From: Mastigocoleus sp. MO_188.B34
GTDB taxonomy: Bacteria; Cyanobacteriota; Cyanobacteriia; Cyanobacteriales; Nostocaceae
Direction of reading: 5' to 3'
Assembly (NCBI RefSeq): GCF_030065675.1
Contig: NZ_JASJDK010000023.1
Location: 1 to 64,000 of the forward strand
Length of the DNA: 64,000 nt
The position numbers and the translations under genes are program-made. Position 1 is the first letter of the stretch, and every line of letters begins with the position of its first letter. The notes under the pieces are model-generated. The model saw only the letters and a program-made list of their open reading frames with translations. It did not search any database and was not told where the DNA came from. Below, piece by piece: positions 149 through 5,802 of the stretch.

Positions 149-535
149 TTACTCTTTAGGAATTACTGATGTAGAATCGCTATTGCGAACAGTGAAACTA
201 CCGTCGGAGTTTTCAGTAATCGTAGTATCGCCGTTAGGATCTTGAATAACAACAGGTTTACCATTAGAATCTCGCCCAACAATAGTATCATTCACTCGTA
301 AAATGACATCCCCATTAGCAGGTGTGCTTGATGAATCATTGTTAGCTGTAGCAGGAGTGGTATCACTAGTCGCTGTATTTGCGTTATTAGAGGCTGTGTT
401 TGTATTATTAGCGGCTGTATTTGTATTGCTAGTTCCTCTACTTGTATTGCTAGCTCTTCTAGTATTACTTGAAGTAGAACCACTGCAAGAAACTAACATT
501 ACAGATATAAATATTGCAACAAATAATTTACTCAT
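149..535 (-). CDS. Small putative lipoprotein, copy 1
   Basis: This 128-residue protein begins with a short hydrophobic signal and a lipobox (LVSC, Cys17), which predicts diacylglyceryl modification and membrane anchoring. Residues about 20-70 are a low-complexity linker rich in Asn, Thr, Ser and Ala, built from imperfect NTNTA-like units. The last about 55 residues form a compact domain containing DSNGKPVV, DPNGDTT and DGSFTV. That domain is closely similar to the C-terminus of the lipoprotein at 3012-3350, so the two are paralogues. The function is unknown. The neighbours are two double-glycine peptides and an LptF-type permease on the same strand. The lipobox and paralogy are seen directly; location in the cell is inferred. 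Confidence 0.8.
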   Translation of the reverse strand: MSKLFVAIFISVMLVSCSGSTSSNTRRASNTSRGTSNTNTAANNTNTASNNANTATSDTTPATANNDSSSTPANGDVILRVNDTIVGRDSNGKPVVIQDPNGDTTITENSDGSFTVRNSDSTSVIPKE

Positions 536-757: not shown

Positions 758-1060
758 CTAAAATCCTTGTAATACGACTATAATATCAGAACCATTCGCA
801 GCAATTTGATTGAGTACGTTACCATTATCCTGGTAGGGAAGATAAACAAAACTACCTGAAGATGCATTTATTTGATTAACAACTTTATTCCTATCTCCGG
901 ATTCAAAATTAACTATATTAATAGCAGAGAAACTTCCATTATTATGTAAACTTATAGAGTTAGCTGCTTCTAAACCTCCATGAATTATTCTTTGCTCTAA
1001 GACCTTTAAATTACTCAAATAAATATTTGTATTCGATTCTAGTTTTTTAATCTTTATCAT
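758..1060 (-). CDS. Small protein with double-glycine leader (peptide B)
   Basis: This is a 100-residue protein with ATG start and an AAGGA ribosome-binding site 9 bases upstream. Residues 1-29 look like a double-glycine leader: hydrophobic positions L-x-x-L-x-V-L-E-Q-x-x-I end in HGG. Leaders of this type are cleaved after GG by C39 peptidase domains of export ABC transporters. The predicted 71-residue product is rich in Asn, Ser, Ile and Val and ends in QIAANGSDIIVVLQGF. The upstream gene has an equal-length leader of the same pattern and a related C-terminus. No matching C39 transporter lies in the window. It could be a bacteriocin-like or other secreted peptide; the function is not known. 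Confidence 0.65.
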   Translation of the reverse strand: MIKIKKLESNTNIYLSNLKVLEQRIIHGGLEAANSISLHNNGSFSAINIVNFESGDRNKVVNQINASSGSFVYLPYQDNGNVLNQIAANGSDIIVVLQGF

Positions 1061-1239
1061 TGGCTTATTTCCTTTAATTTAATTGAATAATGCAGTAAAA
1101 ATTGCAATTTTTTAGCATCACAAGATAATTTTTATTTATCGGTATCTTTTTATTAAAATTTATAAGTTACTGTCTCGAACATTAATTCAGACAGTAACTC
1201 TAATATTTTCTAACGATTTACCAAATAGACTGATGCTGG

Positions 1240-1530
1240 CTAAGGAGTCTGACCGTCATAAATCATTATACTAATGTTAGAACCAACATTAGCGATTTGA
1301 GGTTTGTCAAGATTACCACCATGAAATATATTCTGTGACACGTGTCCTCCTGTTTGAACACCTTCTTTGATTAAAGTTTCTGTTTTTCTATGAAATTTTG
1401 TTTTTGTACCACCGAATAAATTTGGAAATGAAAAACCAAATAAGCCACCATTAATAGATTCTTGATCTAACACATCTAGTTCATTCAAATCATTTACAGG
1501 TGCTAATTGAGAAATTTGAAGTGCAGACAT
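1240..1530 (-). CDS. Small protein with double-glycine leader (peptide A)
   Basis: This is a 96-residue protein. The start at 1530 was chosen because AGAGG lies 9 bases upstream; an upstream in-frame start would add 18 residues without a visible ribosome site. Residues 1-29 form a leader with the pattern L-x-x-L-x-V-L-D-Q-x-x-I-N-G-G, the same length and spacing as in peptide B at 758-1060. The predicted 67-residue product has several GG pairs, a basic central part, and a C-terminus (QIANVGSNISIMIYDG) resembling that of peptide B. The two are probably tandem paralogues exported by a C39-type system encoded elsewhere. That role is inferred from the leader only. Confidence 0.65.
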   Translation of the reverse strand: MSALQISQLAPVNDLNELDVLDQESINGGLFGFSFPNLFGGTKTKFHRKTETLIKEGVQTGGHVSQNIFHGGNLDKPQIANVGSNISIMIYDGQTP

Positions 1531-1715
1531 TAATTTAAACCTCTTTAATCCAATTGAGTCAAATATATAAATGCTTTGTTTCACAAATAAGCTAGTGAAA
1601 AAGCAAACCTCTGATACTTATTAATATCTAGTTATTCTCATAATAAGTCAATAATAAAATCTCTATTTTTAGGACATAATATTCCTTTTTATGTCTTGAT
1701 TTTATTGACTATTTT

Positions 1716-2897
1716 TTAATTCTTGCGCATTAGTATAAAATAACCAATAGATAAACCTAATAAATTGGGAAACCAAACTCCCCAAAATATTGAAATTGAT
1801 TCTGAAATACTTAAAGTTGTACTCACAAATTGAGCACAGCAATAAACTACAATAACAATTGCTGCAACAGTAAAGCTGTTATATTTTGCTTTTCTTTTTG
1901 AGTTTATTCCCAAAGCTGAACCAAGTAAGGTAAATATCATACAAGAAACTGGTGCAGCATACCTTTGTTGGATACTAATTTCGATTTCACGAACTTTTTT
2001 AGTATTTGCGGTATCTCTCACAAGTGCTAATCTGCGATATAGTTCAATAATATTCATCTCACGATGATCGCGATCGTCGCTAACATAATCAAAAACTTTT
2101 CTGCCTAAATTTAAGGGTAATTGTTCGAATTTACGAGTACTAATATATTCACCCTCAGAATTTAATATATTCAAAATACCAGAAAATAATTGCCATTTTT
2201 GTTGTTTTTTGTCCCACTGTGCTGAACGAGCAAGTATTATTTGTCTGAGTTGTTTATTTTTGAATTTAAGTAAGGTAATTTCGAGCATTTTTTTACCATC
2301 AAAACGCTCAGCGAAAAATAGTATTTTTAAATGTTTACGATTTTCTTCAGTTTCAAATTCCTGATAGATAATTTCCTTTTTGTTATATTTAGCTAGTTGA
2401 GTCCGATCTACATTTAATTCCCACTCTAAATTTATCGCTGCTTCGTAATTTGCAGGAGGAACAATCACTTCCTGAATAGTAAACATAAACATCATTGCAA
2501 CACAGGCGATCACCAACGAAGGAATGATGAGACGATACAAGCTAATTCCAATACTTTTTAGAGCAATTATTTCATTTTTATTAGATAACTTCTGATAAAC
2601 AAGAAGATTAGAGATTAATAAAGTAAATGGTAGGACAATACAAATAAAAGCCGGTAGTTTTAACCAATGGGTATATACTGCGATCGCAGTAGATAAATCT
2701 TCCTCAATTGCAAATTTGATTTCTTCAAAAGATATACCTACCACCTCTGCAACAATAGAGCAAATAACGACACTGAAAAGGAATTTTGGAATTAGCTCTT
2801 TAATAATGTATCGGTCTAAAAGAGTAATTCTAAAGCTAATCTTAAAATTAATCTTAAAATTAATTCTAAAAAGCAAATCTACGAGTCTCTTTATCAT
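1716..2897 (-). CDS. LptF/LptG-family permease (YjgP/YjgQ)
   Basis: The protein has the layout of LptF/LptG permeases. There are paired N-terminal membrane segments after LLDRYIIKELIPKF, the conserved run around LVYQKLSNKNEIIALKSIGIS, a soluble central domain (about residues 150-290), and C-terminal membrane segments containing QQRYAAPVSC. In Gram-negative bacteria this family moves lipopolysaccharide off the inner membrane together with LptB. The start at 2897 (ATG, 393 residues) is preferred over a TTG at 2966, because 2897-2990 lies in a duplicated flank whose other copy is stopped in that frame. Residues 10-24 are an in-frame FRINFKINFKIS repeat not typical of the family. Flanking genes are small lipoproteins and double-glycine peptides. 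Confidence 0.8.
   Translation of the reverse strand: MIKRLVDLLFRINFKINFKISFRITLLDRYIIKELIPKFLFSVVICSIVAEVVGISFEEIKFAIEEDLSTAIAVYTHWLKLPAFICIVLPFTLLISNLLVYQKLSNKNEIIALKSIGISLYRLIIPSLVIACVAMMFMFTIQEVIVPPANYEAAINLEWELNVDRTQLAKYNKKEIIYQEFETEENRKHLKILFFAERFDGKKMLEITLLKFKNKQLRQIILARSAQWDKKQQKWQLFSGILNILNSEGEYISTRKFEQLPLNLGRKVFDYVSDDRDHREMNIIELYRRLALVRDTANTKKVREIEISIQQRYAAPVSCMIFTLLGSALGINSKRKAKYNSFTVAAIVIVVYCCAQFVSTTLSISESISIFWGVWFPNLLGLSIGYFILMRKN
2835..2872 (-). repeat. In-frame 12-bp minisatellite at the permease N-terminus
   Basis: About three tandem copies of a 12-base unit (AAAATTAATCTT on the plus strand) encode alternating IN/FK residues between the start and the first recognisable family motif (LLDRYIIKEL). 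The unit count is divisible by three, so changes in copy number would keep the reading frame. Confidence 0.55.
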
Positions 2898-3011
2898 AAA
2901 AAATTGGCTTTGAGAAAGAAAAATATACTTCACTTTCTCAAAGCAATATTTAATTTTACGAATCAATTAAATTGTGAAAATATCAAAAATCAAGAATTGC
3001 TGTTAGGACAG

Positions 3012-3350
3012 TCAAGGGGAGAAAGGATTGCTAGTAAATATAGTTGTACCACCAGAACCATTAGTAACAGTGAAAGTACCGTCAGGATTTTCAGTAAGGG
3101 TAGTATCACCGTTAGGATCTTCAAGAATAACAGGCTTACCATTAGAATCTGGCCCAATAAGAGCGCCATTCACTTGAAGAACGGCATCCCCATTAGCAGG
3201 TTGTACGGATGAGCCATCATTAGTTACAACTTGATTGCTACTACTGACTGTATTTGTACTGCGAGTAGTTCTTTTACTATTACTTGAAGTGCCACCGCTA
3301 CAAGAAGCTAGGATTATAGATATAAATACTACTACAAATATTTTCCTCAT
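3012..3350 (-). CDS. Small putative lipoprotein, copy 2
   Basis: This is a 112-residue paralogue of the lipoprotein at 149-535. The ATG at 3350 places a normal signal sequence (MRKIFVVVFISII) before the lipobox LASC; the longer frame to 3416 would put 22 polar residues ahead of the signal. The linker is shorter and less repetitive than in copy 1. The C-terminal domain keeps PANGD, DSNGKPV, DPNGDTT and GTFTV. Its 3' flank matches the flank of copy 1 and leads into the LptF-type permease, so lipoprotein plus permease form a repeated unit. The function is unknown. The lipid anchor is predicted from the lipobox. Confidence 0.78.
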   Translation of the reverse strand: MRKIFVVVFISIILASCSGGTSSNSKRTTRSTNTVSSSNQVVTNDGSSVQPANGDAVLQVNGALIGPDSNGKPVILEDPNGDTTLTENPDGTFTVTNGSGGTTIFTSNPFSP

Positions 3351-3604
3351 GATGTCCATCGAAACAATAGAATTAAGAATATCAAAACTTTTGCTATAGC
3401 ACATGGTTATAGTCATTGACTATAGAAATTTATGCTTTATTAGCATTTAAAGCAAAATATATCATAGTACAAAATCAGTAGAAAAAATAGGAATTACACA
3501 TTTGAAAAAACAATTAATCGCCAATGCAAAAAAATCATTTGCTCTGAGAGATGGATTCTTCTAAGATATGGTTGTGAAATTCTTTTGTGCGATCGAACTT
3601 AAAT

Positions 3605-4282: not shown

Positions 4283-5802
4283 GTTGTTTCTTCTTGTTTT
4301 TGTTTTGAATCCAACCTGGATCGCACTTCTTGTACTGGTAGAGTGAAACAAAACCTAGTTCCTTTACCAACCTTACTTTCGACCCGAATTGTTCCTTTAT
4401 GAGCTTCTACGATTTGACGACAGAGGTAAAGTCCTAAACCTGCTTTCCCTCTTCGACCTCGTCCCTGAACAAAGCGATAAAATAATTTGTCTTTGTCGCG
4501 ATCGGGTATTCCAGGACCTTCGTCATGAACGCAGATCTCAACTTGTTGGGAATTAATCGCTTTGACTTCAAGACATACTCTTTTACCCGGTTCGCTCACC
4601 TGCACTGCATTATCAAGTAGATTTTGTAATACTCGTCTGATTTCGACGATATCGCCATAAACTACTGGTAATGATGGTGGAATTTTTTGCAATAGCTGAC
4701 ATTTATTCTTAGTTACGGCGTGATTTGAAGAGATAACACGACCAAATATTTTCTCCCAGTTTAATGGTTCTCGATTGAGAATTTGGCTCAGTCCAGCTTC
4801 GTAACGGCTAATATCCAATAGAGTTTCAAGAAGTTTAAGTAAATCGTTATTCGCTAAGCGGTATTCTTTTAATAACTCTTTTAAGGTATCGTTTACGGGA
4901 CCAAATGCTCCTCCCAGTATTGCATCTAGCGTACTGCGATTTGCTAGGAGCGGAGTACGTAAATCGTGAGATAATGTGCCAATTAAATCTTCTAAGTGTT
5001 GGTTGCGTTGTTGAATGCGTTCCTGACGACTACCAATATCTCTAGCCATAGCATTGAGTACTTCAGTCAGTCTACCGATTTCGTCCGGAGATAAATAGTT
5101 GAATTGAGCATCTAATTGTCCTGCTCCCCAGGATTGACCGATCTCGGTTAACTGTTTTAAAGGAAATTCAATTCTTCGACGCATCAGTAAGATATTTATT
5201 CCTACCCCTGCTAAAACCACAATAATATTGAATCCACTTAAACCAATATCAATTTGGTTCAGTAGATTTAACCTTTGCTCGTGTTCTTCCAAAAGTTTTT
5301 TTTCATGATCGAGTATACTCCTAACAGAGACTTTTAAAGGTTCCACAGAGTCTTGCTTAACTAAATCATTCAAACTTAAAGAACCATCGAGGACTTTTTG
5401 AGTTAATTGAACTTGCCAACGAGCGTAAAAGGTTCTAATCTCATCTATTTGTTTAATCTGCAAGGAATCTTCTTGCACTAACTCTGACAAACTAGCTATG
5501 CTATTGCGAAATTTATCTTCTCCTATGCGATAACTTTTCAAGTTAGAATTATCGCGATTCATGGCATAATCTCTTAGGGCAATTTTCTCTTCTAAAATTG
5601 CTCCTAGTAGATGTTCTCCTTCACGTTTTACTTCTTGACGGCGATTGACTAAATCGACATTTTCTTGTTCAGAAGCTTCTACCATAAAACTTAGAGCTTC
5701 CTGTCCGAGTAATAGGACTGTTAGTATTGCAAGACTGGTGTAGAGTGGAGCAAATAAGTGATTTTTAAGGAAAGGCAGCTTAAACTTAAAAGAAGGTAAC
5801 AT
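4270..5802 (-). CDS. Sensor histidine kinase (CHASE3-like, HAMP, HisKA)
   Basis: This is a 510-residue membrane kinase. Membrane segments lie near residues 20-40 and 186-208. Between them is a helical extracytoplasmic region of CHASE3 type (EEKIALRDYAMNRD). A HAMP linker (about 208-262) leads to the HisKA motif LSHDLRTPL, with His279 as the predicted autophosphorylation site. The ATPase domain has the N box (LQNLLDNAVQVS), DEGPGIP and GLGLYLCRQIV. It is co-transcribed with, and overlaps, the NarL-type regulator that follows. The signal sensed is unknown; CHASE3 regions in cyanobacteria occur in stress and light kinases, but no ligand can be assigned here. Confidence 0.93.
   Translation of the reverse strand: MLPSFKFKLPFLKNHLFAPLYTSLAILTVLLLGQEALSFMVEASEQENVDLVNRRQEVKREGEHLLGAILEEKIALRDYAMNRDNSNLKSYRIGEDKFRNSIASLSELVQEDSLQIKQIDEIRTFYARWQVQLTQKVLDGSLSLNDLVKQDSVEPLKVSVRSILDHEKKLLEEHEQRLNLLNQIDIGLSGFNIIVVLAGVGINILLMRRRIEFPLKQLTEIGQSWGAGQLDAQFNYLSPDEIGRLTEVLNAMARDIGSRQERIQQRNQHLEDLIGTLSHDLRTPLLANRSTLDAILGGAFGPVNDTLKELLKEYRLANNDLLKLLETLLDISRYEAGLSQILNREPLNWEKIFGRVISSNHAVTKNKCQLLQKIPPSLPVVYGDIVEIRRVLQNLLDNAVQVSEPGKRVCLEVKAINSQQVEICVHDEGPGIPDRDKDKLFYRFVQGRGRRGKAGLGLYLCRQIVEAHKGTIRVESKVGKGTRFCFTLPVQEVRSRLDSKQKQEETTCLK

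What the first reader, a model, noticed from the sequence alone, without database searches (positions are those of the whole stretch)
758..1530. Two tandem peptides share a 29-residue double-glycine leader
Seen: both small proteins have leaders of exactly 29 residues with the pattern L-x-x-L-x-V-L-[DE]-Q-x-x-I-x-G-G, each with a ribosome site 9 bases before ATG. Their C-termini also align (QIAxxGSxI). Known: GG leaders direct cleavage and export by C39-peptidase ABC transporters. Inferred: a peptide export system in which an LptF-type permease and lipoproteins may take part. The mature parts match no bacteriocin class I know.
Basis: partly seen in the sequence, partly recalled or inferred. Interest (0 to 1): 0.75.

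Follow-up and report, generated by a model that had tools for sequence, protein, structure and literature searches.

The report
Two exported double-glycine leader peptides
A marine rock-boring cyanobacterium (genus Mastigocoleus) encodes two small proteins with a cut-here tag for a cleave-and-export pump; in a sister genome the same two genes lie in one cluster with such a pump, so they are new members of a known kind of secreted cyanobacterial peptide whose role is untested.

Summary
Window 758-1060(-) and 1240-1530(-) encode 100- and 96-residue proteins, each with a 29-residue leader ending in GG and a ribosome site 9 bases before ATG. A leader profile built only from another genome ranks them first and second in the window (E 1.9e-9 and 0.021; next 2.9). 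The predicted exporter exists. The own genome (GTDB genus of Mastigocoleus) has eight C39 domains, including on contig C180 an intact cNMP-binding/C39/ABC exporter with HlyD and a PpiC rotamase. In Mastigocoleus testarum BC008 the orthologues of both peptides sit on one contig with the orthologue of that operon, with more GG peptides in between. In a Pleurocapsa-like genome both best relatives lie in a ten-member GG array beside the same kind of exporter. This matches the cyanobacterial C39/HlyD/SurA 'bacteriocin' clusters of Wang et al. 2011: a new member of a known kind, with new core sequences. LptF is not supported as a part. One curiosity: against BC008, DNA identity falls from ~95% to ~55% right at the GG codons of the second peptide. 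Biological activity is unknown.

The parts
758..1060 (-). pep1: GG-leader precursor, 100 aa (stop codon included)
   Evidence: orthologue in BC008 61% identical; dN/dS 0.31
974..1060 (-). pep1 leader, 29 aa, ends GG
   Evidence: leader profile from an unrelated locus E 0.021, second best in window
761..973 (-). pep1 predicted mature part, 71 aa, no Cys, pI 4.4
   Evidence: no Pfam/NCBIfam family; core dN/dS 0.23; single-sequence fold uninformative
1070..1073 (-). AGGA ribosome-binding site of pep1, 9-base spacer
   Evidence: sequence
1240..1530 (-). pep2: GG-leader precursor, 96 aa (stop codon included)
1444..1530 (-). pep2 leader, 29 aa, ends GG; 27/29 identical in BC008
   Evidence: leader profile from an unrelated locus E 1.9e-9
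1243..1443 (-). pep2 predicted mature part, 67 aa, no Cys, pI 9.3; largely replaced in BC008
1540..1543 (-). GAGG ribosome-binding site of pep2, 9-base spacer
   Evidence: sequence
1438..1450 (.). Junction at the GG codons where identity to M. testarum BC008 falls from ~95% to ~55%

Best explanation
Pep1 and pep2 are substrates of a peptidase-containing ABC exporter system. The C39 domain of a 1061-residue cNMP-binding/C39/ABC protein would recognise the amphipathic leader, cut after GG and drive the 71- and 67-residue cores out through the HlyD adaptor and presumably a TolC-type channel; a PpiC/SurA-like rotamase from the same operon may assist folding. The most likely roles of the released peptides are antagonism of neighbours (class II-like unmodified bacteriocin/microcin) or a structural or matrix role in the attached lifestyle, as for EbfG. 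Shown: leaders, exporter operon, same-contig linkage in the sister genome, GG conservation, purifying selection on the pep1 core. Inferred: cleavage, export, role.
For: Leader test on an independent profile. C39 domains in the own genome, with a complete operon on C180 whose domains are cNMP_binding, Peptidase_C39, ABC_membrane, ABC_tran, HlyD_3 and Rotamase; the QQSSSDCGAA, HWEGKHY and VGDPA stretches expected to hold the catalytic Cys, His and Asp are intact. BC008 contig C110 holds the orthologous operon (94.6% DNA identity over 6.9 kb) and the pep1/pep2 orthologues with their right flank (90.8% over 5.7 kb), with further GG peptides between. In L019 both best hits lie in one GG-peptide array beside the same type of operon. 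Across 80 related exporter loci, GG-leader ORFs are about seven times denser than in shuffled sequence (11.6 vs 1.6 per 100 kb; 69 of 80 loci have at least one). Precedents: C39-dependent secretion of EbfG1-4 (PMC4997328) and peptidase activity of HetC (PMC10986499).
Against: In the window's own genome the peptides and the operon are on different contigs (the window begins at base 1 of C88), and C180 and C88 do not meet in the assembly; the 7 kb between them in BC008 is not conserved here. Several other C39 exporters are present, so the cognate one is not proved. No immunity-like gene lies directly beside pep1/pep2. No expression or mass-spectrometry data were available. The cores have almost no homologues outside the genus.
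Confidence: 0.85

Rival explanations
1. Export and cleavage as above, but the products are biofilm/matrix or surface proteins (EbfG-like, some amyloid-forming) rather than antagonists.
For: EbfG1-4 of S. elongatus are GG-leader proteins whose secretion needs a C39 peptidase; they enable biofilm (PMC4997328) and EbfG1-3 form amyloid (PMC9981879). The pep1 core has no Cys, is 23% N+Q and is under purifying selection. Mastigocoleus is an attached, carbonate-boring organism (PMC4732328, abstract).
Against: No sequence match to a known matrix protein; single-sequence folds are uninformative; the pep2 core is nearly replaced between congeners, which fits antagonism better.
Confidence: 0.3
2. Bacteriocin-like antagonism, with pep1 (acidic) and pep2 (basic) perhaps acting together as a two-peptide pair.
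For: Cluster type named bacteriocin by genome mining (PMC3140520); arrays of divergent cores behind one leader type; pI 4.4 versus 9.3, with the same polarity in BC008; abrupt core divergence of pep2.
Against: No immunity gene beside them, no bacteriocin family match, no activity data.
Confidence: 0.4
3. Secreted signalling peptides (HetC-like developmental or quorum signals).
For: The related cNMP-C39 exporter HetC is a peptidase needed for heterocyst differentiation and is proposed to export a signal (PMC10986499).
Against: Mature parts of 67-71 aa are long for a signal, and many different cores share one exporter.
Confidence: 0.12
4. LptF permease and lipoproteins form part of the peptide system.
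For: Adjacent and same strand; this LptF is the second copy in the genome and keeps its place in BC008.
Against: No LptF homologue in the L019 peptide array or in any of the 80 exporter loci fetched; the flank also includes an ordinary two-component pair; one lipoprotein is absent at that place in BC008.
Confidence: 0.06

Closest known systems
Cyanobacterial C39/HlyD/SurA 'bacteriocin' gene clusters, groups I/II (Wang, Fewer & Sivonen 2011, PMC3140520)
   Same: Long-type C39 ABC transporter with N-terminal cNMP/CAP_ED domain, HlyD and a SurA-type rotamase, with arrays of GG-leader precursors of 28-164 aa and hardly conserved cores
   Different: Pep1/pep2 leaders and cores match no named family (no NHLP or N11P hit); in this assembly they are on a separate contig from the operon
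EbfG1-4 / PteB of Synechococcus elongatus PCC 7942 (PMC4997328, PMC9981879)
   Same: Tandem small GG-leader proteins and a C39 peptidase exporter
   Different: No core homology claimed or tested; function here untested
HetC of Nostoc PCC 7120 (PMC10986499)
   Same: cNMP-binding + C39 + ABC domain architecture
   Different: HetC has no known substrate; here GG precursors accompany the exporter in the sister genome
Gram-positive class II bacteriocin / ComA-PCAT1 systems
   Same: GG leader cleaved by the C39 domain; the C180 exporter aligns with PCAT1 and ComA structures along their length
   Different: Gram-negative envelope with HlyD; 67-71 aa cores of unknown fold

Membership tests
GG-leader peptides exported by C39 ABC transporters | Leader with conserved hydrophobic positions ending in GG directly before the core | tested here: met
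GG-leader peptides exported by C39 ABC transporters | Dedicated C39 exporter with intact catalytic region in the genome | tested here: met
GG-leader peptides exported by C39 ABC transporters | Precursor genes linked to the exporter | tested here: met
   Same contig in BC008 and in L019; in the own assembly on different contigs, so unresolved there
GG-leader peptides exported by C39 ABC transporters | GG conserved in homologues | tested here: met
   the porin, FHA and similar hits are judged chance
GG-leader peptides exported by C39 ABC transporters | Demonstrated cleavage after GG and secretion | not testable with these tools
   needs mass spectrometry
Wang et al. group I/II clusters | Long-type C39 transporter (cNMP/CAP_ED) + HlyD + SurA-type rotamase | tested here: met
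   PMC3140520
Wang et al. group I/II clusters | Assignment to group I or II by exporter phylogeny and extra modification genes | not tested
   no tree was built
NHLP (nitrile hydratase leader) / N11P (Nif11) precursors | Match to the family leader models | tested here: not met
   No such hit in NCBIfam or Pfam at E up to 1
Class II bacteriocin | Antimicrobial activity and immunity gene | not testable with these tools
   activity needs assay; no immunity-like ORF directly beside pep1/pep2
Lanthipeptide or Cys-based RiPP | Cys in the core and a modification enzyme nearby | tested here: not met
   No Cys in either core; no modification-enzyme match among the operon proteins scanned; other ORFs around the operon were listed but not all scanned

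The most novel reading that the evidence does not exclude
The leader-core border is a recombination boundary: cores are exchanged as cassettes behind a fixed leader, with leader DNA serving as the homology arm. Window versus BC008 would be one captured event: ~95% identity up to the pep2 GG codons, ~55% immediately after. This would explain how one exporter keeps a changing set of peptides.
Probability: 0.25. Interest if true: 0.55.

Novelty: new member of a known kind. Interest (0 to 1): 0.32.

Why it matters
It links two unannotated precursors in a rock-boring marine cyanobacterium to a defined exporter and gives two short products (71 and 67 aa) that mass spectrometry could look for. The sister-genome comparison catches one place where the leader stays and the core changes, which bears on how such arrays diversify. 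Otherwise it adds members to a known, poorly characterised class.

Tried and rejected
Viral contigs with pep2: no relative. Plasmid and phage collections: no match. Core homologues across ~390 genomes of the order: only porin/FHA-like hits beyond the genus and L019, judged chance from the proteins hit (SLH/OprB-type porin, filamentous haemagglutinin, by my reading of the sequences) and their E-values for single genomes. AlphaFold on the single cores: mean pLDDT 45 and 53, uninformative; no fold search was run on them. Similarity to acetolactate decarboxylase and deiodinase in Pfam/NCBIfam: far below cut-offs, rejected. LptF as a component: rejected for lack of linkage outside the genus. C180 and C88 adjacency in the own genome: plausible by synteny with BC008 but not shown.

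Full report
OBSERVATION. The window is contig C88 of the genome, bases 1-64000, so nothing lies to its left in this assembly. Pep1 (758-1060, minus) and pep2 (1240-1530, minus) are as described: 29-residue leaders ending GG, predicted mature parts of 71 and 67 residues, ribosome sites with 9-base spacers. Neither has a Pfam or NCBIfam family. Neither core contains cysteine; pI is 4.4 and 9.3.

MORE THAN CHANCE. A leader profile built only from ten peptides of an unrelated locus (L019) was run over all 1,858 stop-to-stop fragments of the window: pep2 ranked first (E 1.9e-9), pep1 second (E 0.021), and the next was 2.9; the best hit on reversed sequences was 1.3. Pep1 also matches L019 peptide 5157-5435 into its mature part (LEAANSISLHNNGSFSAIN against LEVKNSITVRPNGSYIALN). 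A profile of all nineteen leaders found in three genomes only the sequences it was made from; no further place passed E 0.1. That says the type is confined to these loci; it is not an independent test. The QIAxxGSxI resemblance of the two C-termini is not significant for the window pair alone, but it is for the BC008 pair and one cross pair.

SURROUNDINGS AND RELATIVES. The own genome has eight Peptidase_C39 matches, five of them strong. Contig C180 carries a full operon: a 1061-aa protein with cNMP_binding, C39, ABC membrane and ATPase domains, a 480-aa HlyD and a 265-aa PpiC-type rotamase, with the stretches expected to hold the catalytic Cys, His and Asp present; it aligns with PCAT1 and ComA structures. 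GG-type small ORFs lie on the same contig (2201-2416; also 688, weaker). A genome of the same GTDB genus (G374) has orthologues of both peptides. Its contig C110 has the same length, 99,202 bases, as Mastigocoleus testarum BC008 record NZ_LMTZ01000110.1, found independently through the exporter. In BC008 the C180 operon (94.6% DNA identity over 6.9 kb) and the pep1/pep2/LptF flank (90.8% over 5.7 kb) are on that one contig; the rotamase gene ends about 7 kb, and the exporter gene about 10 kb, from pep1, with several further GG peptides between. G374 is flagged 38% contaminated, but this contig is shown to be the congener's by its synteny with both own contigs. In the more distant G274, whose small-ORF coordinates on contig C276 coincide with locus L047 (Pleurocapsa sp. 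MO_192.B19), the best hits of pep1 and pep2 lie together in a ten-member GG array beside the same kind of operon. Among 80 related exporter loci, 69 have at least one GG-leader ORF by a generic pattern, 11.6 per 100 kb against 1.6 in shuffled sequence.

MECHANISM. Shown: leaders, exporter, linkage in a sister genome, conservation of GG in all close homologues, purifying selection on the pep1 core (dN/dS 0.23). Inferred from the families: the C39 domain cuts after GG and the ABC/HlyD/outer-membrane channel exports the core; the rotamase may assist folding. The role of the cores is open. Antagonism is suggested by the cluster type (PMC3140520) and by the changed pep2 core; a matrix role by EbfG1-4, which need a C39 peptidase for secretion and include amyloid-forming proteins (PMC4997328, PMC9981879); a signal by HetC (PMC10986499). 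I put antagonism slightly ahead of matrix.

PARTS REJECTED. LptF (1716-2966) has no homologue in the L019 array or in the 80 exporter loci as fetched, and a stronger LptF/G gene is at C133. Its neighbourhood with the peptides is conserved only within the genus. The two lipoproteins flanking it are 46% identical to each other, and BC008 has a GG peptide where the first would be.

A JUNCTION AT THE GG. Against BC008, 90-base blocks from 6408 down to ~1479 are 84-100% identical (typically ~95%), including the DNA upstream of pep2 and its leader (95.4% in the leader). Directly after the GG codons identity falls to 53-57% with gaps, and then 64-80% through pep1. Pep1 shows the opposite pattern: leader 45%, core 68% identical in protein. 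One event does not prove a mechanism. Within the exporter loci, paralogous pairs chosen for similar leaders (mean 91% DNA identity) average 66% in the first 60 core bases and as low as 26%, which agrees with known leader-constant, core-variable arrays; the choice by leader biases that comparison.

COMPARISON AND VERDICT. The architecture is that of Wang et al. groups I/II. The peptides are new sequences within that kind; NHLP and N11P membership was tested and not met. Group I versus II was not resolved. Novelty is modest; interest 0.32.

Noticed in passing
L019:8494-10365 (-); also L047:3348-5363, L064:13095-15266, L086:3537-5585: HlyD adaptor fused to an N-terminal response-regulator receiver domain in four Pleurocapsa/Hyella/Waterburya-type loci (4 of 82 HlyD-like ORFs); in L019 a kinase-like protein (265-2400) closes the peptide array, which hints at phospho-control of peptide export.
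   Followed up: partly
window 1438-1450 versus L028 (BC008): DNA identity to the congener drops from ~95% to ~55% right at the leader/core border of pep2.
   Followed up: partly
window 149-535 and 3012-3351: Two paralogous Ser/Thr/Asn-rich lipoproteins (46% identical), the first missing at this place in BC008.
   Followed up: partly
window 1716-2966: Second LptF/LptG-family permease of the genome besides C133:8476-9579; why two copies is unknown.
   Followed up: partly
L020:2676-4115 (own contig C180): Three tandem paralogous 132-152 aa membrane-like proteins between a GG peptide and the rotamase gene; possible immunity proteins, no Pfam match for the one scanned.
   Followed up: no
L020:10899-11471, L027:5427-5993, L019:13461-14027: A ~190 aa HTH protein resembling the N-terminus of IS630 transposases lies next to the exporter gene in all three loci; possibly a domesticated regulator.
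   Followed up: no
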